This document shows positions 1,231-62,039 of a stretch of DNA of 64,000 nucleotides, in pieces. The number at the start of each line of letters is the position of its first letter. Position 1 is the first letter of the stretch. The translations under genes were made by a program, and so were the position numbers. The notes under the pieces are model-generated. The model made no database searches, had not been told where the DNA came from, and was given only the letters and a program-made list of their open reading frames with translations. Location: assembly GCA_029204225.1 (NCBI GenBank), contig MU831836.1, forward strand, positions 1-64,000, given 5' to 3'. Source of the DNA: Diphasiastrum complanatum. Its lineage: Eukaryota; Streptophyta; Lycopodiopsida; Lycopodiales; Lycopodiaceae.

Positions 1231-1249
1231 TAATCTATATTGATTTGAG

Positions 1250-1558
1250 CATGGATGAACCAATAGGCTGAACCATATAAATTCTTTTCTTCTAGATACC
1301 CATTTAGAAATGCATTAGAGACATCTAGTTGAAGAACTTGCCAATTGAAAAAAATAAGCAAGAGAAATTATGATTCTAATTGATATCATCTTCGCAACTG
1401 GGGCAAAGGTCTCCTTCATAATCAAGTCCATAAACGTGAGCAAAACCTTTAGCACAAAACCTAGCCTTGTACTTGTTGATTGTGCCATCTTGGATTATAG
1501 TTGACTCGAAAAAACCACTTGCAACCAATGATGTGGTTGTTGGATGGAAGATCCACAA
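1250..1558 (-). pseudogene. Copia A reverse transcriptase stub
   Basis: Minus-strand frames encode the start of a copia RT: a fragment with VASGFFESTI and KARFCAKGFAHVYGLDY (1558-1376) and then LQLDVSNAFLNGYLEE (1361-1250). The latter is the conserved RT motif with the first catalytic Asp. The coding sequence then stops matching RT at CATGGAT (1250-1256) and continues straight into the short 3' untranslated segment and polypurine tract. The YVDD-containing part of RT and all of RNase H are therefore absent. Comparison with region B (8585-8591 and 7488-7494) shows the break lies at a shared 7-base word. Confidence 0.8.
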
Positions 1559-1718
1559 GCTCCCATGTCTTATTGGCCATCAAAGCTTCATATTCCTCCT
1601 TCGTGGCAAGGTACCATTCCTTCGAGTTGAGTGCATCATATACATCCTTCGGCTCCTCATGAGAAATAAATAAGCAAAATTAGTGGAGTTGATTTCCACT
1701 TGCTTGCCTCTATCTTTC

Positions 1719-2926
1719 TTAGGTAAGCCTTCTAGACTCGGATCTTTCCCTTTGAGATCTCCTTGGTGAAAAGATTCGAGGTGACTCCTCCTCAATTCTC
1801 GGCCCCATCTCTTCATGATAGTCTTCAAGGGTGATGATTGGAGTATCTTTGTGAGAATCTTTGAACTCGGCCTCCTCAAGAATGTATTTTTGAGCTTCAT
1901 GGAATATAACATCCCTACTCTCAATTGTAGTTGAGGTAGAGGGAACATAGATTCTGTAAGCTTTCTTGTTGGATGCATATCCAACCATGATCCCTTTAAT
2001 AGAATCAGGATCATCTCTTTTCCTCGTTTCCAAGGGCATATTAACAAAGCAAGCACAACCAAAAACTCTAAGGTGATCTACCTTAGGTTTCTTCTTAAAC
2101 AAGACTTCAAAAGGTGATTTTCCAGCAAGTGCATTGTGAGGTAATCTATTGCACAAATAGTTTGCACAATCTATAGCTTCACCCCAGTAAGCAATAGACA
2201 AAGAAGCTGCTACTCGAATTGCTTTAGCACATTCACATAAAGATTTGTTTTTCCTCTCAGCTACTCCATTTTTAGATGGAGAATAAGCACAAGAAAACTC
2301 TCTCTTTATTCCTTCACCTTCACAGTATTCATGAAACTTGTTGGAGATGTATTCACCTCCTCCATCACATCTTAAAGCTTTAACTTTGAAAGAAAACTAT
2401 TTCTCAACATAAGCTTTGAAGAGTAGGAAGTGATAAAAAACCATAGCCTTTGAAGAAAGTAGATACAACCAAGTATACCTAGTAAAGTCATCAATATAGG
2501 TGACAAAACATGTTGTACCACCAATACTTTTAGAAGAGGAAAAATGTACATCTGAGTGTATAAGCTCCAAAGGATGAGTAGTCTTTATAAAAGATTTCTG
2601 ATATGACTTTCTGTGTGACTTTGCAATGGCACAAGCCTCAAAGGCTTGAAATCTTTAGAAAGAGACTTTGGAAAACCAATAGCCTTCACCTTCTTAACCA
2701 TAGAAGACATAGATTTAAAGTTAGGATGACCCAACCTTCTATGCCACAGCTCCTCCTTAGATAACAAAACAACTTCACAAAGGGTTGCATTCTCATAAGA
2801 ATTCAACTTAAAAATTCCACCACATCTAGATCCATCAGCAAGGATCTCATCATTTCTCTTGATAAAACAAGTATTGGAGTTGAACTTTACATCACAACCA
2901 TTATCAAGCAACTTTCCCACACTCAT
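1719..2926 (-). pseudogene. Copia A integrase, downstream copy (GAG-preintegrase to integrase C-terminus)
   Basis: Minus-strand frames give, in order, a protease C-terminal/GAG-preintegrase piece with ELWHRRLGHPNFKSM (2926-2585), an integrase core segment (about 2580-2210), and an integrase C-terminal region with DYWGEAI-like, CNRLPHNALAGKSPFEVLFK and a retroviral-type sheet ending near SRDVIFHE (2201-1719). Integrase inserts the cDNA into the host chromosome. The first segment duplicates 3885-4735 almost exactly. It begins abruptly at SVGKLLDNG, right where the foreign LTR 2931-3884 ends. Stops and frame changes make it non-functional. Confidence 0.8.
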
Positions 2927-2930
2927 TAAG

Positions 2931-3884
2931 TGGAATGACCATGTAGGAACTTTTATTTCTAAGCAAATACAATAAATGCAAGTAGACCCCTCTTAAAGAA
3001 AGTAGAGTGAGCCACCTTTTGATGGTGACCTGTAGTGGAGAGCAATATTCCACTTGTAATTTGTGAAATGTGGAAATTCCACTAGGATGCCACCTAAGGA
3101 GCTCTCTTGCTTATTTAAGAGACTCCCTCTTTGCGAAGAGGAGCTTTTTGCATTGTATCTACTCCATGCTTAATAAGAAGATTTTCCATGAGTTGATGCT
3201 ATACTAAGCTCCTTGATCATGTTGATTTTCTTGAGTGATGCCCCTATGATCATGCCCTTCCATTCATATTGTGTGTGGTTGTGGATTTAGAGTAGATTAG
3301 TGTTCTTGCTTTCCTAGTTGTGGATTATATTTCTTGTTTTCTTGTGGATTAATGTAGGAGCCAGCATTCAAGTAAACTAAAGAGGCTAGAAATGTGGCAT
3401 AAATCTTGCATATTCTCTAACATTCTAGTTCTTGATGTTCTTGGGATGTCCAAGAATCAAAAGGCTGGTTAGTTTCTTGATTCTTGGACTTCTAACATGC
3501 TGTAGATTAGTTCTTGTTTCTTGTTTATCAGTTTATGCAAATGTAGCTCAGTTCAGTGTAGTGTAGGATCTGATTTCAATCCGTTTTTAGAGTAAGTAGT
3601 AGTAGAAACTACTGAACGTTCATTGGTTTGCATGCTGATCTGTGAATGAGTGTTCTTGGCTTGCATCCTATGTAGAATATAAGTGCGTTCAAGAGTGACG
3701 TCCCTAAGTAGTCCTCTGACAGGCAGGACAAAGAAAATCCATACTACAGAGTCCTGGGCATTGTAACACATAAGAAATAGTCAAGTAATGCCCAAACGAG
3801 TCTGGTAACAGACAAGAAATAGATTTGTAAGCAAGAAGCAGAAAAGTAAACAACAGGTCCTCTGGAGCAGGGGATTTGTCAACA
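2931..3884 (+). repeat. LTR of the gypsy-like family, inside copia A (954 bp)
   Basis: The segment starts TGGAATGACC exactly where copia sequence stops and ends TTTGTCAACA exactly where integrase sequence resumes. It is clearly homologous to 20752-21692 and 53328-54268: shared blocks include GAGTGAGCCACCTTTTGATGG, TTCCACTTGTAATTT, and a TATA-like CTTGCTTATTTAAG followed by AGAGACTCCCTC. The plus orientation is inferred from the TATA position and from the 20.7-kb copy, where it is the 3' LTR of a plus-strand element. Flanking bases (TTAAG left, CTTAG right) are not a clean target duplication; instead the copia sequence on the two sides overlaps by about 850 bp. Confidence 0.85.
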
Positions 3885-4373
3885 CTTAGGTTTCTTCTTA
3901 AACAAGACTTCAAAAGGTGATTTTCCAGCAAGTGCATTGTGAGGTAACCTATTGCACAAATAGTTTGCACAATTTATAGCTTCACCCCAATAATCAATAG
4001 GCAAAGAAGCTGCTACTCGAATTTCTTTAGCACATTCACATAAAGATCTGTTTTTCCTCTCAACTACTCCATTTTGAGATGGAGAATAAGCACAAGAAAA
4101 CTCTCTCTTTATTCCTTCACCTTCACAATATTCATGAAACTTGTTGGAGATGTATTTACCTCCTCCATCACATCTTAAAGCTTTAACTTTGAAAGAAAAC
4201 TGTTTCTCAACATAAGCTTTGAAGATTAGGAAGTGATAAAAAACCATAGCCTTTGAAGAAAGTAGATACAACCAAGTATATCTAGTAAAGTCATCAATAA
4301 AGGTGACAAAACATGTTGCACCACCAATACTTTTAGAAGAGGAAAAATGTACATCTGAGTGTATAAGCTCCAA
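3885..4373 (-). pseudogene. Copia A integrase core, upstream copy
   Basis: The minus-strand frame of 164 codons carries the complete catalytic triad of a copia integrase: Asp in LIHSDVHF, Asp in ALRCDGGGKY, and Glu in SQNGVVERKNRSL, with DFTRYTWLYLL between. It is the best-preserved integrase core in the window. It ends at VLFKKKPK where the foreign LTR begins, so the C-terminal domain is separated from it by 954 bp and it cannot yield a whole enzyme. Confidence 0.85.
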
Positions 4374-4387
4374 AGGACGAGTAGTCT

Positions 4388-5125
4388 TTATAAAAGACTT
4401 CTGATATGGCTTTCCGTGTGACTTTGCAATGGCACAAGTCTCAAAGGCTTGAAATCTTTAGAAAGAGATTCTGGAAGACCAATAGCCTTCACCTTCTTAA
4501 CCATAGAAGACATAGATTTAAAGTTAGGATGACCCAACCTTCTATGCCACAGCTCCTCCTTAGATAACAAAACAGCTTCACAAAGGTTTGCATTCTCATA
4601 AGAATTCAACTTAAAAATTCCACCACATCTAGATCCATCCGCAAGGATCTCATCATTTCTCTTGATAAAACAAGTATTGGAGTTGAACTTTACATCACAA
4701 CCATTATCAAGCAACTTTCCAACACTCATTAAGTTCTTTGTAAGCTTTGGAATGAAAAGAACATTAGAAAGTGCAAGAACTTTTGAAGCAGCAAGTTTCA
4801 ATGGAATGTTGCCAATTCCTTCTATTGGGCACTCATGATCATTAGCTGTGTAAATAAATCTCTTGAGTCCTTTGAAAGGTAAGATTGAGTCAAATGACTC
4901 CTTTGAATAGCACATATGTGAAGAAGCTCCACTGTCTATGTACCAAGCTCCATCTTTCTTGGAAGGTGATGAAGAAAAACTGGACACCATGAGTGATCCT
5001 TCTCCATCACTTGCAGCAGAATCTTCTTCAATCTCTTTGGAGAGATTAGCTTGCTTGAGTTGGTTTTTCTTCTTGAAGCAATTAGAGGCATAGTGCCCCT
5101 TCTTGCCACAAAAGAAACACTTCAC
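4388..5125 (-). CDS. Copia A zinc knuckle, protease and GAG-preintegrase (open 245-codon segment)
   Basis: The open frame starts at the nucleocapsid knuckle CFFCGKKGHYASNC. It continues through an acidic linker into an aspartic protease with WYIDSGASSHMC (active-site DSGA), then a preintegrase zinc-binding domain with ELWHRRLGHPNFKSM. Retropepsin cleaves the copia polyprotein. The apparent Met is internal: in a working element this would be the middle of one Gag-Pol polyprotein, and the frame upstream (5140-5893) belongs to Gag. The segment ends at a stop before the integrase core at 4373. Copia G carries a very similar region. Confidence 0.82.
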   Translation of the reverse strand: MKCFFCGKKGHYASNCFKKKNQLKQANLSKEIEEDSAASDGEGSLMVSSFSSSPSKKDGAWYIDSGASSHMCYSKESFDSILPFKGLKRFIYTANDHECPIEGIGNIPLKLAASKVLALSNVLFIPKLTKNLMSVGKLLDNGCDVKFNSNTCFIKRNDEILADGSRCGGIFKLNSYENANLCEAVLLSKEELWHRRLGHPNFKSMSSMVKKVKAIGLPESLSKDFKPLRLVPLQSHTESHIRSLL

Positions 5126-5139
5126 TTTCTTCTTTTTGG

Positions 5140-5893
5140 ACTTTGAGTTAGAAGGATGAGATGTATCATCCTCTTCACCATCTTTGTCTCGATCTTTGGC
5201 TTTGTCTTTGTTGGATGCTTGAGAGAACTAATTCTTACTCCTTCCTTTCTGCTTGCCTTTGACAAAGAGGGCTTTGTCAGTTCCACCATGCTCGAGTTTG
5301 TTCATCCTGGAGAGTTTATGGCTTTGTCTAGATTCTTCAAAAATAAGAATTCCTTGGAGAGTTTCTAGATTAGGCAATTCCTCCTTAATAGCAAAAGACT
5401 GAACAAGATTATCATAGTCATCTCTCAAGCCATTCAGTATGACTTAAACTAGCTCATCTTGGTTAATAGTAACACCAACACACGAAAGCTCTCTATGTAA
5501 ATCTTTAACTCTCAGAACATAGTTAGATGCACTCTCTTCACTTTTTTGAAAACTTTGGAAAATTTGATTCCTAAGAGTGAGTATTCTAAAAGTATTCTTT
5601 ACTTCATAGATGATAATTAGTGCATCTCAAGCTTCTTTGGCTGTAGTGCAAGATCCTATCTCTCTCAGAATTTCATTACATACATTCATCTTAATGAAAT
5701 GTAGAGCCATTCTAGCTCTTTTCTTATACTTAAGAATTTCAGCCTGTGCTTGAGACTCCTCCTCAACACCAAGCACAATATCCATAACATCCTGGAGTAT
5801 CAAAATAGGCTCCATTCTGAACTTCCAAATTGAGTAATTAGACGTGTTTAGTCTTTCACTGGCTTCTAGAAGATATCCTCCCTGAGATGCCAT
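5140..5893 (-). pseudogene. Copia A Gag
   Basis: The minus-strand Gag starts MASQGGYLLEASERL at 5893 and shows the usual plant copia Gag (UBN2/DUF4219-type) order: NYSIWKFRME, a helical region with KYKKRARMALHFIK, then NQIFQSFQKSEESASNYVL and VILNGLRDDYDNLVQSF, and a basic tail into the knuckle at 5125. At least two stops interrupt it, for example after CTTAKEA. It is closely related to Gag of copia G (60341 down), which shows what the intact version looks like. Confidence 0.82.
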
Positions 5894-6648
5894 TTTAATG
5901 AAGACTTCTTAGTTATTGGACTGAGATATGTTTGAGCTTGTTCCAATTAGACTTAAAGTTGATGCTCTCTTTCACTATAGGTATTTTCAAGGACGTACTA
6001 CCTTCCTATGTGAAACACTTGCAACTGTATTTGAGGTGACTCTCAAATATTCCACAAAACAAGTTATCTAGATCAGACACACAAAGTGGATTGAGACACT
6101 TTGGCTAGTTTGAATCCTACTTTTGGCACGTGTGGAATGCTTCAAAAGAAAATGTAATTGACTCTCAAAAGGCTCAAAAGGTGTTCATTACTTCAAACTC
6201 AGTCTTGATCTTCAGTTTTTTGTGTAGGATGCTCAAAACAATGGATTCAGAACAAAGCAAGATTGAATCAAATCAAAATGTTGTCACTCGGATTTTGGAC
6301 CTATCCTTAACTTGTTTAAGAGCTAATAACTTTTGATAGACACATTAGATTGATTTGGTTTCAATTTATATGGAAAGTACAGATCATAAGCTTTTCATTA
6401 GTTATAACACTACTATCTTTGGATCTATAAGCAAGGAGAACAAAGAGACTGAAAATCTTTGATTTTCACACGTGCGGAATTCCAGAATTCTGTACTACCA
6501 CATTTCAGGTCTGAAAGATCAGTTTCAATCCGATTTGATCCAAATACACTTCAGAGAAAGGTGAGAAAAAGTGCAAAACTACTTTTTTGCTTGCTTTAGC
6601 TCTCAGTTTCTTGCAGAATCATAGATGTTAGCATGCAAAGCTTAATTT
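5894..6648 (-). other. Copia A 5' leader
   Basis: This is untranslated sequence between the primer-binding site and the Gag start. No ORF or RNA gene is recognised. It contains a G-box-like word TTCACACGTGCGG near 6468-6480 and a GAATTC-rich patch just after. Confidence 0.6.
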
Positions 6649-6661
6649 GGCTCTGATACCA
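6649..6661 (-). other. Primer-binding site, copia A
   Basis: The minus strand reads TGGTATCAGAGCC immediately after the LTR end TTTTGTCA. This is the standard plant copia site complementary to the 3' end of initiator tRNA-Met, where minus-strand DNA synthesis is primed. Confidence 0.92.
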
Positions 6662-7455
6662 TGACAAAATTTCCAATTCACACGTGTGGGGAATGTCCAC
6701 AAGTATGATTGATCTTGATTAAGCTTTGTGATTGGCACAATAACTTGATTCTAGATTGATTAGCAAGATCTAGTTCAGAAGAAATGGCTTAACCACAATC
6801 TAGCATGCTAAGCAACTGAATATGATAGCAATGAATCAAATAATGAACACAAGTACAAGATTTCAGTGTATTAGCATTAGCTTTAACACGAGTTAGAGAG
6901 AGAAATCTAGAGAGATAACAGGCAAAATAGCTTAGATCCAAAATGGCATGAGCTGTAGCTACAAAACTTTGGTTCGTCATCATTGATTGTGAGGAGAGCT
7001 ACACATATTTATGGAGTTTGAGGTAGCTCAAGGTAGAACCACAGCCATCCATTCCAAAATGACAACTAAAGTGACATCTAGAGTCTATGTGACATTTGTC
7101 ACTTGCTATGCATGAAATTCTACCAACTTTTTACAAGTGTGCTAGTTCTAATTAACAAAGTACAAATCATCATGCATGTGTCCATTACACTTTGTGCATG
7201 CCTTTTTTTCACTATGGATCACTTACAATTAATGCATGTGAATTGCCACGAGTTTCTACAAGCATGACTTTGCTAATTCTATGTCTACAAACTATGTGCA
7301 AGTTGTATTCTTCAATCTAGACATTACATAACCATGTAGCTCGAGTTCTATGTAGGCCAAACTTGGCATTTTGCATTTATGAGCTACATACTTGCATGGT
7401 ACAACATTTGTAGGAAGCCAAGAAATCAATATGGATTGTTTTTCCAATTTTAACA
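6662..7455 (-). repeat. Middle LTR (794 bp) shared by copia units A and B
   Basis: The plus strand starts TGACAAAATTTCC and ends ATTTTAACA; it is similar throughout to 421-1216. It has a primer-binding site on its left edge (6649-6661) and a polypurine tract on its right edge (7456-7470), so it serves as 5' LTR of A and 3' LTR of B. The palindrome CACACGTGTG is at 6679-6688. Confidence 0.9.
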
Positions 7456-7472
7456 CTCCACCTAAAAATAAT

Positions 7473-8048
7473 CTATATTGATTTGAACATGGATCTTGGT
7501 ATAACTCCAAGATTGGCTCTATGCTTGATGAAGGAACTTTTGCTCAAAGGTTTGGTGAGCATATCATCAATACAAGATGATGTGTCGATGTGCTCCAAAT
7601 TGATTTCCCCTCCAATGAGCTTCTCTCTCACGAAGTGATGTGCAACTTCGATATGCTTGCTCCTTGCATGGAATATTGGGTTGTTGGAAAGGTCTTGAGC
7701 TGAAATGTTGTCGCACATGATCATAGGTAGATCCTATTCCAAGATTATCTTCAGCTCCACTAGTAACCTCTTGATCCAAAGCACTTCCTTTGTTGTTGTA
7801 GTGAGCACCTTGTACTCAGCTTCACATGATGAGAGTGATACAAGTATCTTCCTTTTTGGAAAGCCAAGATATATGACATAAGCACTTGTAGATTTCCGAT
7901 CTGCTCTATCACTTGCAAAATCCGAGTCAGAATAACCAATAATAAAAAGATCTTCAGTTTTATATAATAAACCAAAATCAAAAGTTGAAGATATATATCT
8001 AAGCACTCTCTTGGCCATTTTCCAATGATAGATAGTAGGATTTTGCAT
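7473..8048 (-). pseudogene. Copia B RNase H domain
   Basis: Two overlapping minus-strand frames (8048-7734 and 7724-7473) encode the copia RNase H: RVLRYISSTFDFGLLY, YSDSDFASDRADRKSTSAYV, SLSSCEAEYKVLTT, then MCDNISAQDLSNNPIFHARS and KHIEVAHHFVREKL. Catalytic Asp, Glu and Asp positions are present. The domain removes RNA from the RNA-DNA hybrid. A frame break near 7730 separates the last third. Confidence 0.83.
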
Positions 8049-8051
8049 AGC

Positions 8052-8723
8052 CTAGCTCAACTTATGAACACAAAAGCTTATGTCAGGTCTAGTTATTGTG
8101 AGCCAAATTAAGGAGCCTATAAGACTTCTAAAAAGTGTGATATCCACGAAGGATCTTTCATCACCTTTGTTAGAGTCCTTTACATTTTGCTCCATAGGTG
8201 TTTCTATACTCTTACAATTCAACATATTGAACTTCTTTAACATTGAAAGAGCATACTTGGATTGACATACAAAAGTTTTATCTTTAAGAAAGTCAATCTC
8301 TAATCCTAGAATTTTTCCAAGATCTTGCATCTTGAACTCTTTTCCAAGTGCAATCTTGGTTTCCTCAACTAACTTGATACTACTTTCTGTCAGAATGATA
8401 TCACCAACATAAATAAGAAGAATGACAATATCTTTATCAAAAAACTTGACATATAAGAAAGGATCATAGTTATCAAGATTAAATCCTAGTAACTCAAGAA
8501 AGGTGTTAAGTTTAGAATACCATGACCTTGGAGCTTGCTTCAATCCATATAAACTTTTGAAGAGCAAGCAGACTTTTTCTTTGTCATGGATGAACCCAAT
8601 AGGTTGATCCATATAAATCTCTTCTTCTATATACCCATTTAGAAATGCATTAGAGACATCTAGTTGAAGAACTTGCCAATTGAAAAAATAAGCATGAGAA
8701 ATTATGATTTTGATTGATACCAT
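8052..8723 (-). pseudogene. Copia B reverse transcriptase, active-site variant YVGD
   Basis: A 223-codon minus-strand frame covers most of a copia RT: LQLDVSNAFLNGYIEEEIYM with the first catalytic Asp, SLYGLKQAPRSWY, VILLIYVGDIIL, then LGKEFKMQDLGKILGLEI and GSLIWLTITRPDISF. The universally conserved YVDD reads YVGD (GGT in place of GAT), which removes a metal-binding Asp and should abolish polymerisation. The region upstream continues to the integrase C-terminus through a stop near 8723-8700, and RNase H follows downstream across one stop. Confidence 0.85.
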
Positions 8724-9600
8724 CTTTGCAACTGGGGCAAAGGTCTCCTCATAATCAATTCCATAAACTTGAGCAAAACCTTTAGCACAAAGCCTAGCCT
8801 TGTACTTGCTGATTGTGCCATCTTGATTATCCTTGACTCAAAAAACCCACTTGCAACCAATGATGTGGTTGTTGGATGGAAGATCCACAAGCTCCCATGT
8901 CTTATTGGCCATCAAAGCTTCATATTCCTCCTTCATGGCAAGGTACCATTCCTTCGAGTTGAGTGCATCATATACATCATTTGGCTCCTCATGAGAAATA
9001 AAATAAGCACAATTAGTGGAGTTGATTTCCACTTGCTTGCCTCTATCTTCATAGGTAAGCCTTCTAGGCTCGGATCTTTCTCTTTGAGATCTCCTTGGTG
9101 AAAAGATTCGAGGTGACTCCTCCTCAATTCTCGGCCCCATCTCTCCATGATAGTCTTCAAGGGTGATGATTGGAGTATCTTTGTGAGAATCTTTGAACTC
9201 GGCCTCCTCAAGAATGTATTTTTGATCTTCATGGAATATAACATCCCTACTCTCAATTGTAGTTGAGGTAGAGGGAACATAGATTCTGTAAGCTTTCTTG
9301 TTGGATGCATATCCAACCATGATCCCTTTAATAGAATCAGGATCATCTCTTTTCCTCGTTTCCAAGGGCATATTAACAAAGCAAGCACAACCAAAAACTC
9401 TAAGATGATCTACCTTAGGTTTCTTCTTAAACAAGACTTCAAAAGGTGATTTTCCAGCAAGTGCATTGTGAGGTAATCTATTGCACAAATAGTTTGCACA
9501 ATCTATAGCTTCACCCCAATAAGCAATAGACAAAGAAGCTGCTACTCGAATTGCTTTAGCACATTCACATAAAGATCTGTTTTTCCTCTCAGCTATTCCA
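8724..9600 (-). pseudogene. Copia B integrase C-terminal half and RT lead-in
   Basis: The 231-codon minus-strand frame 9533-8838 encodes YWGEAIDCANYLCNRLPHN, GKSPFEVLFKKKPKVDHL, RVFGCACFVNMPLETRKRDD, SRDVIFHEDQKYILEEAE and then the linker to RT ending TWELVDLPSNNHIIGCKWVF. An overlapping piece (8890-8702) continues toward RT. The protein is nearly identical to the A copy at 2201-1719. Upstream of about 9600 the integrase Glu motif survives as AERKNRSLCECA, but the central part with the second catalytic Asp is missing at the family junction. Confidence 0.83.
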
Positions 9601-10016
9601 TTTTCTCTACTAGAGACTTGAACTTAATGAAAGCTTCATAAACAAGACTTTTTTTTTTATAGTAACTCAATCCATGTGAATCTAGTACAATCATGTATAA
9701 AAGTTACATACACCAAGGCACCTCCATTACTTGCATGTGAAAAACTATGTACATCAGAATGTATGAGATCCAAGGGAGAGAGAGATCTTGAAGAAGATCT
9801 CTTGTAAGAAGATTTGTGTGACTTTGCAAGGCCACATGCCTCACACATCTTTCCACACTTCTTGAAAGCTCTTGGTAGGCCGAGAGCTAGTTCCTTGCTT
9901 GTCATTGACTCCATAGATTGAAGATTAGGATGGCCTAATCTCTTATGCCAAAGCTCCACTTGAGATAGCTCCTCCCTAGCCAAGTTCACACTTTCACTTG
10001 CAACATTAGCATCCAA
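9601..10016 (-). pseudogene. Integrase N-terminal part from a second copia family
   Basis: The minus-strand frame 10016-9657 contains the preintegrase motif VELWHKRLGHPNLQSMESM, a zinc-finger pair with CEACGLAKSH, and the first catalytic Asp in DLIHSDVHSFSHASNGG, followed by DCTRFTWIELL. After a poly-A-like run a fragment reading EAFIKFKSLVEK follows and then joins directly to the family-A sequence NGIAERKNRS at about 9600. The sequence differs clearly from the A-family preintegrase (for example KSMSSMVKKVKAIG there), so this is a different lineage. Confidence 0.78.
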
Positions 10017-24183: not shown

Positions 24184-25012
<829 letters not shown>

Positions 25013-25024
25013 ATGGTATCAGAG
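25013..25024 (+). other. Primer-binding site, copia F
   Basis: TGGTATCAGAGC lies immediately after the LTR end CTTCACA; it is complementary to the 3' end of initiator tRNA-Met. Confidence 0.92.
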
Positions 25025-25615
25025 CTTGTGTTGTAGGTTATGAAAGGATTTGCCACATTCATCAAGGATTTGGAGGAGATATCAATGCTAGAGCATGCTA
25101 CATTGATTGCTACTCAAAAATCGAGGTTTTTGCATATTGTAGATTGGATCTTTTGTAGGTCAAAACTCAATTTAGCTCAATGAACTTGAGGAATTCCAAT
25201 TTCACACTATAATTACTAGAAATAGTTGATTTTTGATGCATTAGGAAGGTCTCACTTGAGGCTACAAGATTCTATATCAAGTTTTTAGCAATTGCATGTA
25301 GGATTTGGAATATTCAATTTTTTTGTGATTTTGTCAAAACCCTAATTTTTATTGGATCTCTATTTTGTGAGGTTACTGAACTTCATTAGAATGTGTGTAA
25401 ATCTTCGGAAGTGGCAAGAGTCATTAGATTGAGGATAGATCATAAGTTGATCAAGATTTCTACATTCTATTTGTTGATTTGCTATATATAAGTGCTAGAA
25501 GAGAATTGAGAGGTTCCATATCTTGTGATTTCTTTTTGGAAACATTTTTTGTATTTCAAAAGAGTGCTTTGTGCATTGGAACAAGTTGAAAGAGAAGGAT
25601 CAGATCATTGCAACA

Positions 25616-26709
25616 TGGCTACATCAAGTGGAGTCATGTTGGAAGCCAATGATAGGCTTCTCTCAAGCAACTAGTCATTGTGAAAAGTGAGGATGGAATC
25701 ACTTCTTGAGATGAGTACTACACATGATAAAGGTGAATGTTACCAATGAACTTCTCAAGGAAGTTGGTAAGAGTACTTCATCAAAGGATGCTTGGGATTC
25801 ATTAAAGAAGCTTTATGAATCCAAGTCTACATCTAGAGTGTTGACTCTAAGAAGACAAATCTTTCAAAGTTTGCAAAAGAATGAAGAGAGTCCAAATATT
25901 TTCTTTTGAGAGTGAAGGCTTTGAATGATGAGTTATCTTGCATTGACGAAAGCTTTAAGGAAGGAGAACTTGTTCAAGTTATTCTTAATGGTTTGTTGGA
26001 TGCTCATGCTAACATTGTACAAAGGCTTGCCATTCAAAGAACTTTGCCAATATTGATTGATCTTCAAGATATCTTGATCAATGAAGAATATAGGCTTCAA
26101 GCAAGAGGGGGATCTACATCAACATCTCAAGTTGGAGAGGAGGCTATGTTCATTAAGGGCAAATTCAAGGGCAAAAGCAAAAGTAAGTGGTCTAAGGGCA
26201 AGATCAAGGGGAGGCTTCTTCAAATATCAAAAAGAAAGATAGGTCTAAGCATCAAAGGACACTTTGCAAGTGAGTGCTACAAGAAGAAGAGAGATCAAGG
26301 AGACAAGCAAGGTAATCTTACTCATGATGAAGATGGTTTGGATGTTCAAAATTCAAATGATGATGCTTTTGTGATGTCTTCATGTATGCTTGCTAATGAT
26401 GGAGATCTACATCCATGGTGGATTGATAGTGGTGCAAGCTCACACATGACTTTTCACAAAGAGTACTTCACTTCTTTGTTGGCATATGGAGATGACAAGA
26501 AGGTGATCTACACGGCCAATGATGGTGAGTGTGCAATAAAAGGGATTGGCACAATTCCTATTTCTCTCTCTACAAATAGGAATCTTCATCTGAAGGATAT
26601 TTTGTTCATACCTTCCATTACCAAGAATTTACTTAGTGTGAGTCAATTGCTAAGTAAAGGTTTCAAGTTGAGTTTGAGAAATGCAAAGTTTGCACCTTCA
26701 ACTTGCTAA
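25616..26709 (+). pseudogene. Copia F Gag and protease
   Basis: Gag begins MATSSGVMLEANDRLL at 25616. It has early stops and frame shifts, then open pieces 25724-25909 (VTNELLKEVGKSTSSKDAWD, LTLRRQIFQSLQKNEES) and 25906-26709 (267 codons). The latter holds VQVILNGLLDAHANIVQRL, a Lys-rich region, a knuckle remnant KGHFASEC lacking its first two Cys, and a protease with PWWIDSGASSHMTFHKEYF and FIPSITKNLLSVSQLLS. The two frames overlap at 25906, a one-base frame shift. The protease end breaks off at 26700. Confidence 0.78.
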
Positions 26710-33560: not shown

Positions 33561-34119
33561 TCTCCTTTTCCATTCCATCCTTTTTGTTAGCCATAACAAA
33601 AGCATCAAGCTTGAAAAGTCTACCTTGTCTATTGCCCCTAGCAACCAAGATTTCTTCCTTTGTAATGAAACAAGCATCACCACCAAAATTTACCATGTAT
33701 CCTTTCTCTATCATTTGACCAACACTTAGAAATTTTTTTGAGAGTTAAGGAATGTAAAGAACACCATCAAATCTTGCTTTCCTATTAGTAGAGAGACAAA
33801 TAGGAATTGAACCAATACCTTCAATCACACATTCACCACCATTGGCCACGTGAATTGCTTTCTTGGCTCCATCATAAGTGACCAAAGAAGTAAAGAACTC
33901 CTTGTGACTAGTCATGTGGGAACTAGCTCCACTATCAATCCACCATGAATCTTTGTCACCTTCACTTGATATTGGACTTGAAGAACACATCAAAAGAGAA
34001 TCACCACCACCTAGATCCTCATCATTAGTAGTAAAGTTGATTTGCTTGCTACCTTCATCTCTTTGCTTCTTCAAACATTCATTTGCAAAACAACAATCTA
34101 GATGTACACTTGGATTCAT
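33560..34119 (-). pseudogene. Copia E protease
   Basis: The minus-strand frame 34119-33745 contains a knuckle remnant (FANECLKKQRDEGSKQ), an acidic linker, then SWWIDSGASSHMTSHKEFF with the retropepsin DSGA, and IEGIGSIPICLSTNRKARF. After a stop the protein continues as FLSVGQMIEKGYMVNFGGDA in the next frame (33714 on). It is close to the F protease, differing by scattered substitutions. Confidence 0.78.
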
Positions 34120-34420
34120 AAAGCTTCTTCAAAGCTTCCCAAGCCTCCAAAGATGATGTGCACTTACCAATCTCCTTGAGAAGTTCATTGGTAACATTCA
34201 TCTTAATCATGTGTAGAGATTACTTTGCTCTCTTGTCATACCTCACTTGATCTTGAGGTGCTTGAGGTCTCTCCTCCACACCTGCAACAATCTCCATCAA
34301 CTCATTCATCTCCAATAAGGACTCCATCCTCACCTTCCAAGTAAAATAGTTGATTGAGGTAAGCCTATCATTGCTCTCCAACATAAATCCACCACTTGTA
34401 GCCATGTTGAAGTGAGCTGA
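34120..34420 (-). pseudogene. Copia E Gag, internally deleted
   Basis: Gag starts MATSGGFMLESNDRLTS (about 34405, minus strand) and runs through YFTWKVRMESLLEMNEL, VEERPQAPQDQVRYDKRAK and NELLKEIGKCTSS to ALKKLYESKCTSRLL. It then jumps straight into the knuckle remnant, lacking about 130 residues that F retains (FQSLQKNEES through the Lys-rich tail). Confidence 0.78.
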
Positions 34421-34994
34421 TCTTCTTCTTTCAACCTGTTCCAATGCAGAAAGCACTCTCTTGAATGTCAACAAATGAACTCAAGAAGAAATCACAAAGA
34501 TATGGAATCCCTCAAATCTCTTCTAGCACTCTAACTAGAAAATCAATACATAGAATAGTGAAATCTTGATCAACCTATGATCTATCCTCAATCTAATTTT
34601 TCTTGCCACTTCCTAAGATTGAAACACACTCAAATGAAGTTCAGTAACCTCACAAACTAGAGATCCAGTCAAAATTAGAGTTTTGACAAAATCACAAAAA
34701 ATTGAATATCTCAAATTCTACATGCAATTTCTAGAAACTTGATATATCTTCTTGTAGACTCCAATGAGACCTTCCTAATGCACCCAGAATCATCTAAATC
34801 CAGTAACCCAAGTGTGAAATTGGAATTGATCAAGTATATAACCCTATATTGAGTTTTGACCTACAAAAAATCAATTCTACACATGCAAAAGTGCTGATTT
34901 TTGAGTGGAAATCAATCTGGCATGCTCTAGCATTGGTAACTCCTCCAAATCCTTGCTAAAGATGGCTGATCCTTTAATAACCTGAAACACAATA
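34421..34994 (-). other. Copia E 5' leader
   Basis: Untranslated sequence between Gag start and primer-binding site, homologous to the leader of F (25025-25615) by eye (shared words such as TCAAAACCCTAATTTT). No gene. Confidence 0.6.
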
Positions 34995-35006
34995 GGTCTG
35001 ATACCA
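34995..35006 (-). other. Primer-binding site, copia E
   Basis: The minus strand reads TGGTATCAGACC directly after the LTR end CCTTCACA. One base differs from the initiator tRNA-Met complement TGGTATCAGAGC. Confidence 0.85.
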
Positions 35007-35662
35007 TGTGAAGGATTCTAGATCATTCAAGATCCAATCCATGTCCCTGATCTTTGGTTACAATAAGGAGCAAACCAACAATTTTGCCAATGTAGAAAAA
35101 TCAGAATCTACATACAAAATGAGATGCAAACTCTAAGAGATACTGATCAAACATGAACCAAAACATAAAATATATTTGTTTTCTGTACAATTACAGTACC
35201 CTATTGTATTTCACACGTGTGGAACCAAAAGTAGCAAAATATGAGCATTCTACACACAAGATTGCAAGATATCACCAAGATAGTGCACCAATGAGTAGTA
35301 GAACCCAAAGAGAACCATGTATAATGATGAAATGAGAGAGATAATGGAGAAGATGTGTCTATCCATGAGTTAAATTCTTTTTCTAGAGTGTCCAAACCCT
35401 ATTTGGTTACTTGGCTTTCCCTCCAAAATGTAAACCCTACTATTTTTGGGTCTAGATTCAATGTACCCAAAGTTCAAATTTGAATCTCTCTCAAACTCGA
35501 CTATCAACTTTCCCACACTTTCAAAAAGTGTTTATTGAATGTATTTTAAACTAATTTAACTTCAAAAAGTTTTATCTCTAAGTCTAAAATGAGTTTTGGC
35601 CTCTTATTAACAATTTAACAAAATATGACTAAACTAGACTAAACTAGTTGAAATCTCTCACA
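35007..35662 (-). repeat. 5' LTR of copia E (656 bp)
   Basis: The plus strand begins TGTGAAGGATTCTAG and ends AAATCTCTCACA. It is homologous to the F LTR in reverse orientation but lacks the CT expansion. CACACGTGTG is at 35212-35221. Confidence 0.85.
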
Positions 35663-56551: not shown

Positions 56552-56734
56552 TAAGATTTCTTTTGTGTCGGTTATTTTTAATAATCAAACACGAATATTA
56601 AACATTTTCAATTTTTTGCTAAAAGTATAGCATAAGTACATGGAAAATTGACAAAATGTTTCTCTAAAAAACACTAAAGTTCCTTTAGTTTCTAACTAAA
56701 ATTTAACATTTGATACGAGAAATCGATACCCGAT

Positions 56735-56817
56735 ATCGATTTGCGGTATCAAATTGACAAATGATGCCACAGATTGATATCAGATATCGATCTCTCGTTT
56801 TCATACCGCAAATCGAT
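56735..56817. repeat. Inverted repeat with ATCGATTTGCGGTAT arms, left of copia G
   Basis: The arm at 56735-56749 is the reverse complement of 56803-56817 (15 of 15), with a loop containing further ATATCGAT words. A near-identical module lies on the other side of G at 61914-62007. The pair look like neighbouring copies of a short palindromic repeat into which G inserted. Confidence 0.85.
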
Positions 56818-56831
56818 ACTCGAGTTGCGAT

Positions 56832-57641
56832 TGTTGAATTTCACACGTGTGGATTGTCCACTACATGTACTTGTGATCTCCTAAGGTGTGTAGATGCACC
56901 AAGATCAAGACTAGATTGAGATTCAAGATCTATCTTTGATTCTATGGCAAAAACACACTACTACATGCATTCAATCACTTCCAACTCTCACTCACACGTG
57001 TGAGAAGTGTTCCAAAAGTATTCTAAGTAAAAACAAGCTGCTCTCCTCGGGTAGAGAGAGAAAAACCATCATGAGCTCTCGGGTAGAGAGAGAAAGCTAG
57101 AAATTCAATGACACTCAAAATCCACTCAATCTCAAAATCAAATTAGATCCAAAAGGAGGAGTACAATGATACTAATAGATTCATGAGCTACCACTATGCT
57201 TAACTATGATTGGATCACACTTTGCCACCTCTTAATCCTATTGGACCATTGATCCATGCACCTCTAAATTCTATTGGACTATATTCAAGCACACCTCAAT
57301 TTTCTATTGGACCTCACAAGGTTCCACCTCTAAATCCTATTGGACCTCTTAAGCTTCATCAAACAAAAGCATGACACTTGTCTACACTCTAATTGGCACA
57401 AGTTTGGCTCAATATTGGCATTACAAGTGGAAATGGATAATTTGCCATCTATGCCAAATTTGACCCTATCAACATCCTACACCTAAATGCTTGACTATGA
57501 AATTCTATGAGACCCCTATATCAAACATTTTGATTTACTTTACAATTGTCCACACGTGGGAACATCCTCCACACATGTGAGATTCACTTACAAACTTCTA
57601 TCATAAAAAATACCAAGCTAGATTTTTGCCAATTTCTCACA
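56832..57641 (-). repeat. 3' LTR of copia G (810 bp)
   Basis: Plus strand TGTTGAATTTCACACG to CAATTTCTCACA, followed by the purine tract complement CTCCTCCTCAAAAAA. CACACGTGTG occurs at 56842-56851 and 56993-57002. It shares with the E 3' LTR the repeated word CTCTCGGGTAGAGAGAG. Confidence 0.95.
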
Positions 57642-57656
57642 CTCCTCCTCAAAAAA
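57642..57656 (-). other. Polypurine tract of copia G
   Basis: The minus strand reads TTTTTTGAGGAGGAG directly before the LTR start TGTGAGAAATTGG. Confidence 0.8.
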
Positions 57657-57767
57657 TAGCTTGGAAAGGTACTAGATCACTTGAGAAGTTTGTAAATCTT
57701 TTTGAGTGGATCCTTTGGTATGCATAAGAAGTGAAGATCAGCCAAGGGATCCATCATAGCACCACCC

Positions 57768-60341
57768 TTACCATATCCATGATAAGATCTCTTTGGTAGA
57801 GATCTCTTGCCAATGCCTTTGAAGAGTGCTCCACCAATATGCCACTATTATCATGGGCTTCCTCCATGCTTGATGATGATCTTTGCCTTGAAAGTTCCAC
57901 TTGCATGATGGATGCACCATAAATAGAGAAATATGAGGCTTCCAAGCCTCATAAGGATCATGGAGATCAAGATCATAAGATGTGAAACAATGATGATTAT
58001 CAAGATTATGCTTTCTAGCTTGACTAGTCCACATACAATGAACTATATCCATGATGGATCTAATCTTGATATCAAAGACTATCTTGATCTTTTTTAGGCT
58101 AGTTACTCTCTCAAGGATGTAAGTGTCCACTTTGGATGCTTCACTTAATCTCAAGAGGAGTTTACAATTTGCCTCAAAACATGTGAAAACATGATTTTCA
58201 AAAAAGTGAGTACCAAGCTCAATCTTGTTCTTACTAGAACCAAGAGCATACTTTTGACAATACAATATCTTGCTTTCAAAAAGTATTGGAAACACATCTA
58301 AGTCAATAATGACAAGAAACATGTCCATACCATAAGCATCATACAAAACTAGTATAGCTTTTCTTGAACTTTGAGATCCAAAAAATTCAATGAAGCAAGA
58401 TAGCATTTCAAGCAAAGGAAGAGAAGCATATATGAATGTGTTGTAGTAGATACAACATGAAAGATGCCCCTCTTTGCCATGTAAGGTGAGCCATAAAGAC
58501 TCGGCCATGCATCTTGAAGATATTCTTGAAATCATATGCAGAAGAAACTCCTCCTCACACATTGGCCCCATCATAACATGAATACCTTCAAAAAGGATAA
58601 TTTGTGATGCTTCTTGAGAAGCCTTGATCTCGGCCACTTCCAAGATTGAATCTTCATGCAATATGACATCTCTATTCACCATCACATTTGAAATAGAGAG
58701 TGTAAAGACACTAAAGGTCTCCTTGATGGATGAGTATCCAATCATGATCCATGAGCTTGGATCATCCTTCCTTCTTGTTTCCAAGGGAATATGTGCAAAG
58801 CAAGCACTACCAAGTTCACTAAGGTGATCAAACTTAGGCTTCATCTTGAATAAAACTTCATATGGTGCTATTCCTTCAAGAGCTCCAATACTCCTCAAAG
58901 CTTTGATCTTCAATGAGAATTTCTTCTCAACATATGCTTTGAATAATAAGGAATAATCATACACCATAATACTTGAAGAGAGAAGATATGTGCATCTTGT
59001 GTAATCCTCCTCCTTTGAAATATTGGAAATATAAGAAACATCAAGAGAGTTTGCACTCTCACTTGGATCAAATTTGTAGATGCCTTCAAATCTTGATCCA
59101 TATGCAAGGATCTCACCATCCTTCTTAATTACACAATTGTCAATATTGAAATTGACATCAAAGCCACTATCAAGAAGTTGGCCAACACTTAAGATGTTCT
59201 TTGTAAGCTTTGGGACAAAAAGAACATTGTTGAGAAAGAGATCTTTAGAAGATGCAAGCTTCAAGGGAATAATCCCTACTCCTTCAATATTGCACTCATG
59301 CTTACTTGCAAAGTATATGGTCTTCTTGACTCCATCATAAGGCATAATAGATGAAAAAAAGTTCTTGGAGCCACACATATGTGAAGATGCTCCACTATCA
59401 ATATACCATGAGTCATCCTTGTTGAAGGTGGAAGAGGAGAAGCTTGATGCCATAAGAGAGCCTTCTCCATCACTTGCAATATAGTCTTCTTTCTCATTGA
59501 TGATGTTGGCTTGATTGAGTTGATTCTTCTTCTTGAAGCAATTGGTGGCATAATGGCCTTTCTTGCCACAATAAAAACACTTGATCATCTTCTTCTTGAG
59601 ATTTGAATTAGAAGCATGAGAGGTATCCTCCTCCTCTCCATCTTGGTCTTTAGCTTTGTCATTAGAGAAGTGATGGTGTTGCTTCTTACTCCTCTCTTTG
59701 TGCTTGGCAAATAGAACTTTGCCATCATCATGATTGAGTGATAGCTTGTCCATCCTCAAGAGTTTGTACTCTTGTCTTGATTCTTCATAAATAAGCACAC
59801 TTTGAAGGGCCTCCAAACTTGGTAGCTCCTCCTTAATAGCATAGGATTGGACAAGGTTGTCATATTCATCTCTCAAGCCATTGAGAATGACTTGGACTAG
59901 CTCACTTTGATTGATTGAGTCACCAATACATGCAAGCTCCCTATGAATATCCTTGACTCTCAAAACATAATTAGATGCACTCTCATCACTCTTTTGACTA
60001 CTTTGGAATATTTGATTTCTAAGAGTGAGGAGCCTAGAGGTGTTCTTAGCCTCATAGATGGACTTGAGACAATCCCAAGCTTCCTTGGATGTAGAACAAT
60101 CACCAATCTCCCTCAATATCTCATTAGAGACATTCATCTTAATGTAGTGGAGAGCCATCCTAGCTCTCTTCTTGTATTTTTGTACTTCTTGAAGGACTTG
60201 AGGCTCCTCCTCAATCCCAAGTACAATGTCCATCACATCTTGGAGTATCAAGATGGACTCCATCCTCAACTTCCATATTGAATAATTGGAAGTAGACAAT
60301 CTCTCACTTGGTTGCAACAAGTATGAACTCATTGAAGTCAT
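57768..60341 (-). CDS. Gag-protease polyprotein with degenerate pol, copia G (857 aa)
   Basis: One open frame covers nearly the whole internal region. Residues 1-240 are copia Gag (NYSIWKLRMES, NQIFQSSQKSDESASNYVL, VILNGLRDEYDNLVQSY). CFYCGKKGHYATNC (255-268) is the knuckle. WYIDSGASSHMC places the protease active site at about 315-318; LFVPKLTKNILSVGQLL follows. From about 430 the preintegrase domain is gone and integrase survives only as scraps: DYTRCTYLLSSSIMVYDYSL, YVEKKFSLKIKALR joined to IAPYEVLFKMKPKFDHL and CFAHIPLETRRKDDPSSW. All three catalytic acids are missing. The last 250 residues contain faint RT-like words (NKIELGTHFF) but no YVDD and no RNase H. The start at 60341 matches the Gag start of element A. 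Normal copia polyproteins exceed 1200 residues. Confidence 0.9.
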   Translation of the reverse strand: MTSMSSYLLQPSERLSTSNYSIWKLRMESILILQDVMDIVLGIEEEPQVLQEVQKYKKRARMALHYIKMNVSNEILREIGDCSTSKEAWDCLKSIYEAKNTSRLLTLRNQIFQSSQKSDESASNYVLRVKDIHRELACIGDSINQSELVQVILNGLRDEYDNLVQSYAIKEELPSLEALQSVLIYEESRQEYKLLRMDKLSLNHDDGKVLFAKHKERSKKQHHHFSNDKAKDQDGEEEDTSHASNSNLKKKMIKCFYCGKKGHYATNCFKKKNQLNQANIINEKEDYIASDGEGSLMASSFSSSTFNKDDSWYIDSGASSHMCGSKNFFSSIMPYDGVKKTIYFASKHECNIEGVGIIPLKLASSKDLFLNNVLFVPKLTKNILSVGQLLDSGFDVNFNIDNCVIKKDGEILAYGSRFEGIYKFDPSESANSLDVSYISNISKEEDYTRCTYLLSSSIMVYDYSLLFKAYVEKKFSLKIKALRSIGALEGIAPYEVLFKMKPKFDHLSELGSACFAHIPLETRRKDDPSSWIMIGYSSIKETFSVFTLSISNVMVNRDVILHEDSILEVAEIKASQEASQIILFEGIHVMMGPMCEEEFLLHMISRISSRCMAESLWLTLHGKEGHLSCCIYYNTFIYASLPLLEMLSCFIEFFGSQSSRKAILVLYDAYGMDMFLVIIDLDVFPILFESKILYCQKYALGSSKNKIELGTHFFENHVFTCFEANCKLLLRLSEASKVDTYILERVTSLKKIKIVFDIKIRSIMDIVHCMWTSQARKHNLDNHHCFTSYDLDLHDPYEAWKPHISLFMVHPSCKWNFQGKDHHQAWRKPMIIVAYWWSTLQRHWQEISTKEILSWIW

Positions 60342-61085
60342 GTAAAGTGGAGATAAATAAAAGTGATGAACAAAAAATGTTGCTTCTCTCTCACTATAGG
60401 ATCCAATAATGGTGTGCTACCATCTCCTATGCAAGATCTTGCAACAAATTGTGAGATGATTCTCACTAGCTATCTCAATCTCTCCAAAACTAGATCTACT
60501 TCACATCAAATGATGGAGTATGGGCAAAGTTAGGATCAAACACTCTTATCACGTGTGAAATACACTAAGAAACCAAATTTGACTCAAATACAATGATATT
60601 GCATGAAACAAAATGGCTAAGATCTCAAAACAGTGCCTAGATCACATATAGATGAGATTGGTAAGCATTCAACTGTGATTTTGGATCAAACAAGCAATCT
60701 TTTGACCAAACCAAATGTGTCCACCCAGGTCTAGGTGCCCTACCTAACCCTCTTCAAAAGCTTATAACTTTTGATTGGCTCAACCAAATGGAATGAAACT
60801 GATTGCATCAGAAACTAGACAAAAATAGCTTCAAAACAAGCTATCTAGCAAGATTTTTGGATCAAACATGAAAGAGAACTACAAACTGAAATTGGATGTT
60901 CCTCACACGTGTCTGAGCACCTGATTCCGTACAGTACCAGGTCAGACCCAATCAATGTCCTTTTGATCTCTTTTGATCCAAAATTGAACAAGATAGCTAG
61001 GAAAATGGGCCTTGACAATTTCTAGCTCAAGATTGATGAATAGTTTTCACTCAAAATAGATCAAAATGCATGGTAACCTTAGGTA
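60342..61085 (-). other. Copia G 5' leader
   Basis: Untranslated sequence between primer-binding site and Gag, containing CACGTGTGAAATAC near 60550 and CACACGTGTC near 60904. No gene. Confidence 0.7.
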
Positions 61086-61098
61086 GGCTCTGATACCA
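61086..61098 (-). other. Primer-binding site, copia G
   Basis: The minus strand reads TGGTATCAGAGCC immediately after the LTR end AATTCAACA. Confidence 0.95.
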
Positions 61099-61908
61099 TG
61101 TTGAATTTCACACGTGTGGATTGTCCACTACATGTACTTGTGATCTCCTAAGGTGTGTAGATGCACCAAGATCAAGACTAGATTGAGATTCAAGATCTAT
61201 CTTTGATTCTATGGCAAAAACACACTACTACATGCATTCAATCACTTCCAACTCTCACTCACACGTGTGAGAAGTGTTCCAAAAGTATTCTAAGTAAAAA
61301 CAAGCTGCTCTCCTGGGGTAGAGAGAGAAAAACCATCATGAGCTCTCGGGTAGAGAGAGAAAGCTAGAAATTCAATGACACTCAAAATCCACTCAATCTC
61401 AAAATCAAATTAGATCCAAAAGGAGGAGTACAATGATACTAATAGATTCATGAGCTACCACTATGCTTAACTATGATTGGATCACACTTTGCCACCTCTT
61501 AATCCTATTGGACCATTGATCCATGCACCTCTAAATTCTATTGGACTATATTCAAGCACACCTCAATTTTCTATTGGACCTCACAAGGTTCCACCTCTAA
61601 ATCCTATTGGACCTCTTAAGCTTCATCAAACAAAAGAATGACACTTGTCTACACTCTAATTGGCACAAGTTTGGCTCAATATTGGCATTACAAGTGGAAA
61701 TGGATAATTTGCCATCTATGCCAAATTTGACCCTATCAACATCCTACACCTAAATGCTTGACTATGAAATTCTATGAGACCCCTATATCAAACATTTTGA
61801 TTTACTTTACAATTGTCCACACGTGGGAACATCCTCCACACATGTGAGATTCACTTACAAACTTCTATCATAAAAAATACCAAGCTAGATTTTTGCCAAT
61901 TTCTCACA
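61099..61908 (-). repeat. 5' LTR of copia G (810 bp)
   Basis: Same length as the 3' LTR with two visible differences. CACACGTGTG occurs at 61109-61118 and again near 61260. Confidence 0.95.
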
Positions 61909-61913
61909 GCGAT

Positions 61914-62007
61914 ATCGATTTGCGGTATCAAATTGACAAATGATACCGCAGATGGATACCGGGTATCGATCTCTCGTATCAATTTTGATTTTGATACCGC
62001 AAATCGA
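61914..62007. repeat. Inverted repeat right of copia G, partner of 56735-56817
   Basis: Arms ATCGATTTGCGGTAT (61914-61928) and ATACCGCAAATCGA (61994-62007) flank a loop with GATACCGGGTATCGAT, itself palindromic. It is about 85% similar by eye to the left module. Confidence 0.8.
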
Positions 62008-62039
62008 CACCGTGTATCGAGTTCAAATATTGAATGGCG

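What the first reader, a model, noticed from the sequence alone, without database searches (positions are those of the whole stretch)
56832..61908. Very young copia insertion that lacks a working integrase and RT yet keeps an 857-codon frame open
TSD GCGAT is perfect, LTRs differ at 2 of 810 positions by eye, and one frame runs from Gag through protease into scrambled integrase/RT remnants with no stop. All three integrase acids and the RT YVDD are absent. A recent transposition by an element with no pol of its own implies trans-mobilisation, and the long open 3' portion suggests either very recent rearrangement or selection for the extended protein. This is close to a defined non-autonomous copia subfamily encoding only Gag-protease.
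Basis: partly seen in the sequence, partly recalled or inferred. Interest (0 to 1): 0.75.

Follow-up and report, generated by a model that had tools for sequence, protein, structure and literature searches.

The report
Mobile copia family lacking own polymerase
This is one of more than a thousand copies of a copia-type jumping gene that makes its own coat protein and protease but must borrow the copying and inserting enzymes from another element; the odd part is a long tail on its protein whose reading frame stays open although its amino acids hardly seem to matter.

Summary
Window 56832-61908 (minus strand) is a 5,077-bp copia element: 810-bp LTRs differing at 2 positions, GCGAT duplications, and an 857-codon frame with Gag, zinc knuckle, protease, an integrase fragment and the integrase SH3 domain. 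No integrase core or RT is detected. "Scrambled RT remnants" are not established. It is not a one-off: its integrase deletion junction occurs at 1,138 places in the host genome, none for a reversed control. Six of seven further two-ended copies have perfect 5-bp duplications; seven two-LTR elements, window included, date to about 0-0.8 My. It is therefore a semi-autonomous Gag-protease subfamily, presumably moved in trans, a known kind (TR-GAG; wheat RLG_Sabrina_SA, RLG_Quinta). The partner was not found. New here: in the 413-codon post-protease tail, truncating mutations are common as singletons (39 against 321 others) but nearly absent among shared variants (1 against 118; p=1.7e-4), while missense changes look unconstrained (omega about 1.1). 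Leader and LTRs do show shared frame-breaking indels. The frame thus seems kept open largely regardless of sequence; escape from nonsense-mediated decay is my untested explanation.

The parts
56827..56831 (.). target-site duplication GCGAT (left)
56832..57641 (-). 3' LTR, 810 bp
   Evidence: 808/810 identical to the other LTR, 2 transversions
57642..57650 (-). polypurine tract GAGGAGGAG next to the 3' LTR
   Evidence: sequence; the window's related copia has GGAGGAG or GGTGGAG at the same place in its two LTR copies; role recalled
57768..60341 (-). 857-codon open frame, Gag-protease-integrase fragments-tail, stop included
59769..60263 (-). Gag domain (residues 27-191)
   Evidence: Pfam PF14223, E 6.5e-28
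59535..59585 (-). zinc knuckle (residues 253-269)
   Evidence: Pfam PF00098, 20.6 bits, cut-off 20.8
59160..59408 (-). protease region (residues 312-394)
   Evidence: Pfam PF22936 Pol_BBD, E 7.5e-24
58896..59009 (-). fragment of integrase core (residues 445-482) between the two deletion junctions
   Evidence: tblastn to the window's related copia, 60% identity; no Pfam rve match
58857..58910 (-). deletion junction 2 (ALRS|IGALEGIAPYE), the 54 bases used as probe
   Evidence: 1,138 places at up to 2 mismatches, 0 for the reversed control
58647..58847 (-). integrase SH3 domain remnant (residues 499-565)
   Evidence: Pfam PF25597, E 4.2e-11
57771..58481 (-). 3' tail of the frame (residues 621-857), no recognisable domain
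   Evidence: AlphaFold2 mean pLDDT 33 on residues 614-857
60342..61098 (-). leader, from the primer-binding site to the frame
61087..61098 (-). primer-binding site TGGTATCAGAGC (initiator tRNA-Met type, recalled)
   Evidence: same 12 bases in the window's related copia at 6661
61099..61908 (-). 5' LTR, 810 bp
61909..61913 (.). target-site duplication GCGAT (right)

Best explanation
The element belongs to a large, recently active, semi-autonomous copia subfamily. Copies carry LTRs, primer-binding site, polypurine tract and a frame for Gag and protease, but neither a full integrase nor RT/RNase H. It is transcribed from its LTR and makes Gag and protease; its RNA is packaged, copied and inserted by the enzymes of another copia (inferred; partner not identified). 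The integrase, RT and RNase H losses are shared by the family and are not recent. The translated tail after protease is kept free of stops and frameshifts in lineages that keep multiplying, although its amino acids are little constrained. I infer that what matters is that ribosomes run almost to the 3' LTR: a stop after protease would leave about 1.4 kb of untranslated RNA before the 3' LTR and expose the genomic RNA to nonsense-mediated decay. Shown: subfamily, junction, copy number, TSDs, age range, truncation deficit in the sample. Inferred: mobilisation in trans, and the decay-escape reason. My odds by step: subfamily moved in trans 0.9; frame of the tail under selection to stay open 0.6; decay escape as the reason 0.25.
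For: 1,138 junction copies, 0 control. Of the 20 loci fetched, 7 gave both element ends and 6 of these 7 have perfect 5-bp TSDs, all different, plus the window; LTR K2P 0-0.021 in 7 elements, window included. Gag-PR vs the window's related copia: dN/dS 0.20; SH3 remnant 0.45-0.48. Among 37 deduplicated copies, variants shared by 3 or more: gag-PR omega 0.38 (N12/S10, p=0.026), tail 1.17 (N39/S10). Tail truncating against other mutations: singletons 39:321, shared 1:118, Fisher p=1.7e-4 (counts, test; one search adds three in-frame indels to the 321 and gives the same p); in the 23 junction-sampled copies alone 30:213 vs 1:64, p=0.009; without L073 and L076 35:282 vs 1:86, p=0.0023. Shared non-3n indels against shared substitutions: leader 7:43, LTR 11:86, tail 0:119 (p=1.5e-4 and 1.1e-4). 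Sister copy L073: 100 tail substitutions, no stop (5.4 simulated, P=0.004) and no gap in the tail.
Against: No autonomous partner with matching LTR ends was found; the RT search of the genome did not complete. Sharing can also come from recurrent mutation or gene conversion. The same single-vs-shared truncation contrast is not significant for gag-PR (21:270 vs 3:61, p=0.59), where constraint should be at least as strong; two of those three shared events are complementary indels summing to +3. At 'shared by 2 or more' gag-PR omega is 0.89, not different from 1. Some singleton classes are also short of stops (gag 3 vs 9.0 expected, residues 445-620 3 vs 8.5), so singletons are not a perfect neutral yardstick; singleton indel rates also differ between LTR and tail (p=0.015). 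Many thresholds were tried; the gag-PR p=0.026 would not survive correction. L073 lacks everything upstream of residue 441, so its tail is not attached to gag. L079 has a tail stop and two 1-base insertions. One search's default-scoring alignment puts 2 gap columns in L073. No transcript or protein data.
Confidence: 0.6

Rival explanations
1. The tail is under no selection. It is eroding pol sequence that happens to be still open in the few source copies, and the deficit of shared truncations is sampling noise or an effect of recent common ancestry.
For: Missense omega in the tail is 0.95-1.38 in every class except one class of 8 variants (2.26). Gag-PR does not show the same truncation contrast. 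Tail open in only 14 of 26 covered copies. AlphaFold2 gives no fold, mean pLDDT 33.
Against: Truncating mutations are compared with point changes of the same class, so age is accounted for (p=1.7e-4; 0.009 in the junction-sampled copies). Leader and LTR of the same set do have shared non-3n indels, though fewer copies cover them (16 and 23 against 34). The more diverged L073 copy is open after 100 substitutions.
Confidence: 0.25
2. The tail encodes a real, loosely constrained protein part (for example a Gag-protease C-terminal extension needed in the particle), comparable to the DUF1 of wheat RLG_Quinta.
For: Frame conserved. Differences in residues 621-857 that L073 and L079 share and that are rare in the other copies give omega 0.61 (N19/S9, p=0.25). 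L073 has 67 amino-acid changes against 74 simulated (P=0.06).
Against: No significant amino-acid constraint in any class tested; no Pfam match and no PDB match better than E 1.9; no confident model.
Confidence: 0.2
3. A one-off defective copy carried along by recombination or by a single event.
For: None in the calls apart from its own lack of pol.
Against: 1,138 places with the same junction; independent TSDs.
Confidence: 0.01
4. The 3' part (residues 634-857) is captured host or foreign sequence rather than drifted RT/RNase H.
For: No detectable pol homology by BLAST or Pfam.
Against: Stop-free in the pol frame; a weak colinear alignment to RT/RNase H (BLOSUM45, p about 0.02; not with BLOSUM62).
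Confidence: 0.35

Closest known systems
TR-GAG elements (plant non-autonomous LTR elements encoding GAG, in some definitions GAG plus protease)
   Same: Two LTRs around a frame with GAG and protease and no RT or RNase H; Inpactor files elements with only GAG, or GAG and AP, there (PMC6022998, passages). A copia TR-GAG (AT5TE33540, ATCOPIA63, 562-aa GAG) was seen to transpose in ddm1 (PMC8704663, passages).
   Different: Here the frame runs 413 codons past protease through integrase fragments into an unrecognised tail, and this frame looks retained.
RLG_Sabrina_SA, wheat
   Same: High-copy 'semi-autonomous' family with an intact GAG-Pro frame; the RLG_Sabrina population lacks RT and INT (PMC9744471, passages).
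   Different: Gypsy, not copia; no such tail mentioned in the passages seen.
RLG_Quinta with RLG_Cereba, wheat
   Same: Non-autonomous family with its own GAG plus an unexplained part (DUF1), moved by a partner (PMC11302176, passages).
   Different: Centromeric and of another superfamily (Gypsy; the label is recalled for Quinta); its partner is identified by PBS and LTR ends; here no partner is identified.
BARE-2, LARD, TRIM
   Same: Non-autonomous LTR elements (PMC6022998, passages).
   Different: BARE-2 has a disrupted GAG and its other genes intact (PMC9744471, passages); Inpactor uses LARD and TRIM for elements without any domain.

Membership tests
Ty1/copia LTR retrotransposon | copia-type Gag and protease region | tested here: met
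   PF14223 and PF22936
Ty1/copia LTR retrotransposon | TG..CA LTRs, PBS, PPT, 5-bp TSD | tested here: met
   6 of 7 further copies with perfect 5-bp TSDs
Ty1/copia LTR retrotransposon | pol order INT before RT | tested here: inconclusive
   only INT fragments remain; RT absent; the window's related copia has SH3 followed by RT
TR-GAG (Inpactor rule: GAG, or GAG+AP, only) | GAG with or without protease present | tested here: met
TR-GAG (Inpactor rule: GAG, or GAG+AP, only) | no INT, RT or RNase H domain | tested here: met
   no rve or RVT_2; an INT SH3 remnant is present, which a domain screen could score as INT
TR-GAG (Inpactor rule: GAG, or GAG+AP, only) | mobile as a family | tested here: met
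   1,138 junction copies, TSDs, young LTRs; transposition itself not observed
Autonomous/non-autonomous pair (criteria in PMC11302176, passages) | identical PBS | tested here: met
   PBS identical to the window's related copia
Autonomous/non-autonomous pair (criteria in PMC11302176, passages) | identical LTR termini | tested here: not met
   TGTGAGAAATTGG..TTCAACA here vs TGTTTAAAATTGG..TTGTCA in the relative, its LTR edge set by eye: that relative is not shown to be the partner

The most novel reading that the evidence does not exclude
A retrotransposon lineage keeps a long reading frame open for the sake of openness itself. After losing RT and RNase H it retains more than 400 codons of nearly free-drifting translated sequence because translation up to the 3' LTR protects its genomic RNA from nonsense-mediated decay (or a similar surveillance). 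Selection then acts on stops and frameshifts but not on amino acids.
Probability: 0.25. Interest if true: 0.75.

Novelty: new variant of a known kind. Interest (0 to 1): 0.5.

Why it matters
In the papers seen here, semi-autonomous Gag or Gag-protease families are described mainly from Gypsy in wheat and from copia and other TR-GAGs; this is a copia family with over a thousand junction copies in one genome. If its tail is really held open without amino-acid constraint, it separates selection on protein sequence from selection on frame length. That gives a natural test of whether RNA surveillance shapes which defective retrotransposons can still multiply.

Tried and rejected
One-off copy: rejected. 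Intact parent of the same subfamily: the intact-integrase probe gave 236 places at up to 2 mismatches and none exact; of 30 loci read, 10 had any BLAST match to the element, at 65-77% identity apart from two 54-nt matches at 80-81%. A second probe for intact sequence left of IAPYEVLF gave 840 places; the 10 loci read all had the same deletion. RT/RNase H origin of residues 634-857: not shown. Structure of the tail: mean pLDDT 33, so no fold search was made. An autonomous relative by RT protein and a genome count of the first junction were asked for repeatedly and never answered. Papers: Chaparro 2015 (PMC4350172) is not held, so TR-GAG is taken from later papers' passages. No paper describing this element, or a copia Gag-protease family with a frame-conserved tail, was seen in the listings or in the passages read; that is no proof of absence.

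Rows dropped before counts: L007, L017, L070 and L072. L007, L070 and L072 share flanks with another copy; L017 was dropped as a near-identical copy of L012 sharing its stop and indels, no flank being available. still held these rows or some of them. L049-L054 were left out of the frame counts because they are the same places as L009-L012, L016 and L018. One search scores each base singly in the window's codons and so books one L073 change as a stop; the L073 translation itself has none.

Full report
What is there. The element is on the minus strand, 56832-61908, 5,077 bp. Its two 810-bp LTRs differ at 2 positions, both transversions, and GCGAT flanks it on both sides. TGGTATCAGAGC follows the 5' LTR directly and GAGGAGGAG precedes the 3' LTR. 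The frame 60341..57768 has 857 codons. Pfam shows copia Gag, zinc knuckle (marginal), protease region and the integrase SH3 domain, but no integrase core and no RT.

How it was shortened. The same window holds a degenerate related copia on the same strand (gag-protease at 5893-4541, 66% identical in the tblastn alignment). Against it, the frame jumps from just after protease into the integrase core (residue about 445). After 38 residues it jumps again (ALRS|IGALEG, residue 482-486) into the C-terminal SH3 region. Homology ends near residue 620-633. The part after it matches nothing in Pfam, and in the PDB nothing better than E 1.9. An alignment with the relative's RT/RNase H is colinear but weak: z 2.5 and p about 0.02 with BLOSUM45, 0.18 with BLOSUM62, and shuffle level by tblastn. 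AlphaFold2 on residues 614-857 with an eight-row alignment gives mean pLDDT 33. So 'scrambled RT' is possible but not shown.

A subfamily, not a relic. The 54-base integrase junction occurs at 1,138 places with up to two mismatches and never in the reversed control. A 601-base piece of the 3' part has 1,547 candidate places, and the 40 that were scored are all at least 99% identical. Of 41 loci read over the frame, 39 cover each junction and 37 have both without an indel. For the 24 loci fetched through the junction this is by construction; of the seven found by tail DNA alone six have both, and of the ten found by the probe for intact sequence eight have both, the others not covering one or both. 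Of the 20 loci fetched, seven gave both element ends, and six of these seven have perfect 5-bp TSDs, all different (L068 does not). Seven elements with two full LTRs, the window included, have LTR distances of 0-0.021, or 0-0.8 My at 1.3e-8 per site per year (rate recalled). A sister group (L073 and kin) has LTR stretches only about 69-79% like the window's but a tail about 92% identical, so the rearranged structure is older than the present burst. Some copies are mosaics (L076, L079).

Selection. Between the element and the window's relative, gag-protease has dN/dS 0.20 and the SH3 remnant 0.45-0.48. Within the subfamily I compared 37 deduplicated copies with the window copy, without building any consensus. 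Variants in one copy only mostly arose after insertion; variants shared by several copies mostly arose in copies that went on to multiply. In variants shared by three or more copies, gag-protease has omega 0.38 (N12/S10, p=0.026 uncorrected) and the tail 1.17 (N39/S10); at two or more, gag-protease is 0.89 and the tail 1.12. For truncations in the tail, singletons hold 17 stops and 22 frameshifts against 321 other substitutions; shared variants hold one stop and no frameshift against 118 (Fisher p=1.7e-4). Restricted to the 23 copies sampled through the junction only, it is 30:213 against 1:64, p=0.009; without the two sister-like copies 35:282 against 1:86, p=0.0023. In the same data the non-coding leader has 7 shared non-3n indels per 43 shared substitutions, the LTR 11 per 86, gag-protease 1 per 63, the tail 0 per 119; among singletons the tail is also lower than the LTR (22:337 vs 24:169, p=0.015) but not clearly lower than the leader (15:146, p=0.20); fewer copies cover leader (16) and LTR (23) than tail (34). 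The sister copy L073 differs from the window tail by 100 substitutions with no stop (5.4 expected, P=0.004) and no gap. Against this reading: the same contrast in gag-protease is not significant (21:270 vs 3:61), some singleton classes are also short of stops, many thresholds were looked at, recurrent mutation and gene conversion blur 'shared', and L073 lacks everything upstream of residue 441. Openness today is modest: 4 of 18 fully covered copies (L011, L014, L068, L075) plus the window have the whole frame open allowing in-frame indels; the tail is open in 14 of 26 and gag-protease in 11 of 22.

How it most likely works. Shown: an LTR element family without its own polymerase and integrase core has multiplied recently. 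Inferred: RNA made from the LTR is translated into Gag and protease, packaged, then copied and inserted by another copia's enzymes. I could not name that copia. The window's relative has the same primer-binding site but different LTR ends, so it fails one of the pair criteria used for RLG_Cereba/RLG_Quinta (PMC11302176, passages). Inferred, less surely: the tail is kept open because a stop after protease would leave about 1.4 kb untranslated before the 3' LTR and mark the RNA for nonsense-mediated decay. That plant decay senses long 3' untranslated regions is recalled knowledge; the listings showed no paper whose title or abstract start ties it to plant copia elements, and I read none of them.

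Known or new. Non-autonomous families with Gag, or Gag and protease, are known: TR-GAG (PMC6022998, PMC9784723, passages), a copia TR-GAG that transposes in Arabidopsis ddm1 (PMC8704663, passages), wheat RLG_Sabrina_SA with GAG-Pro (PMC9744471, passages), and RLG_Quinta with GAG plus an unexplained domain (PMC11302176, passages). This is a new copia member with over a thousand junction copies and, as a variant, a tail whose frame seems kept while its sequence drifts.

Noticed in passing
window 421-9604, minus strand: Related copia with two 95% identical repeats that contain its LTRs (421-1256, 6662-7494) and internal duplications (2082-2931 = 3885-4734; 1250-2272 = 8585-9604, about 96%); it looks like a recombined LTR-internal-LTR-internal array with a stop-bearing RT/RNase H at about 7495-8800.
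   Followed up: partly
window 24746-25843 and 34091-35274: Inverted pair of copia-related stretches, four arm pairs 75-89% complementary, 8-10 kb apart, with a primer-binding site at 25014.
   Followed up: no
window 56707-56798 and 61910-62036: The element sits inside CGATATCG-rich repeats with inverted symmetry, perhaps a MITE or satellite.
   Followed up: no
L073 (G000:C1 near 2767213): A fully open 417-codon tail, 84% identical in amino acids, that starts at residue 441, right at the first deletion junction, with unrelated DNA upstream.
   Followed up: partly
L076: Mosaic copy: part of an LTR (76% like the window's) abuts directly on protease-tail sequence 94% like the window's, followed by leader-like sequence at 74%.
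   Followed up: no
L006/L007; L012/L017; L070-L072: Near-identical copies: L006/L007 and L070-L072 share flanks, a sign of segmental duplication or unmerged haplotype contigs; for L012/L017 no flank was available.
   Followed up: partly
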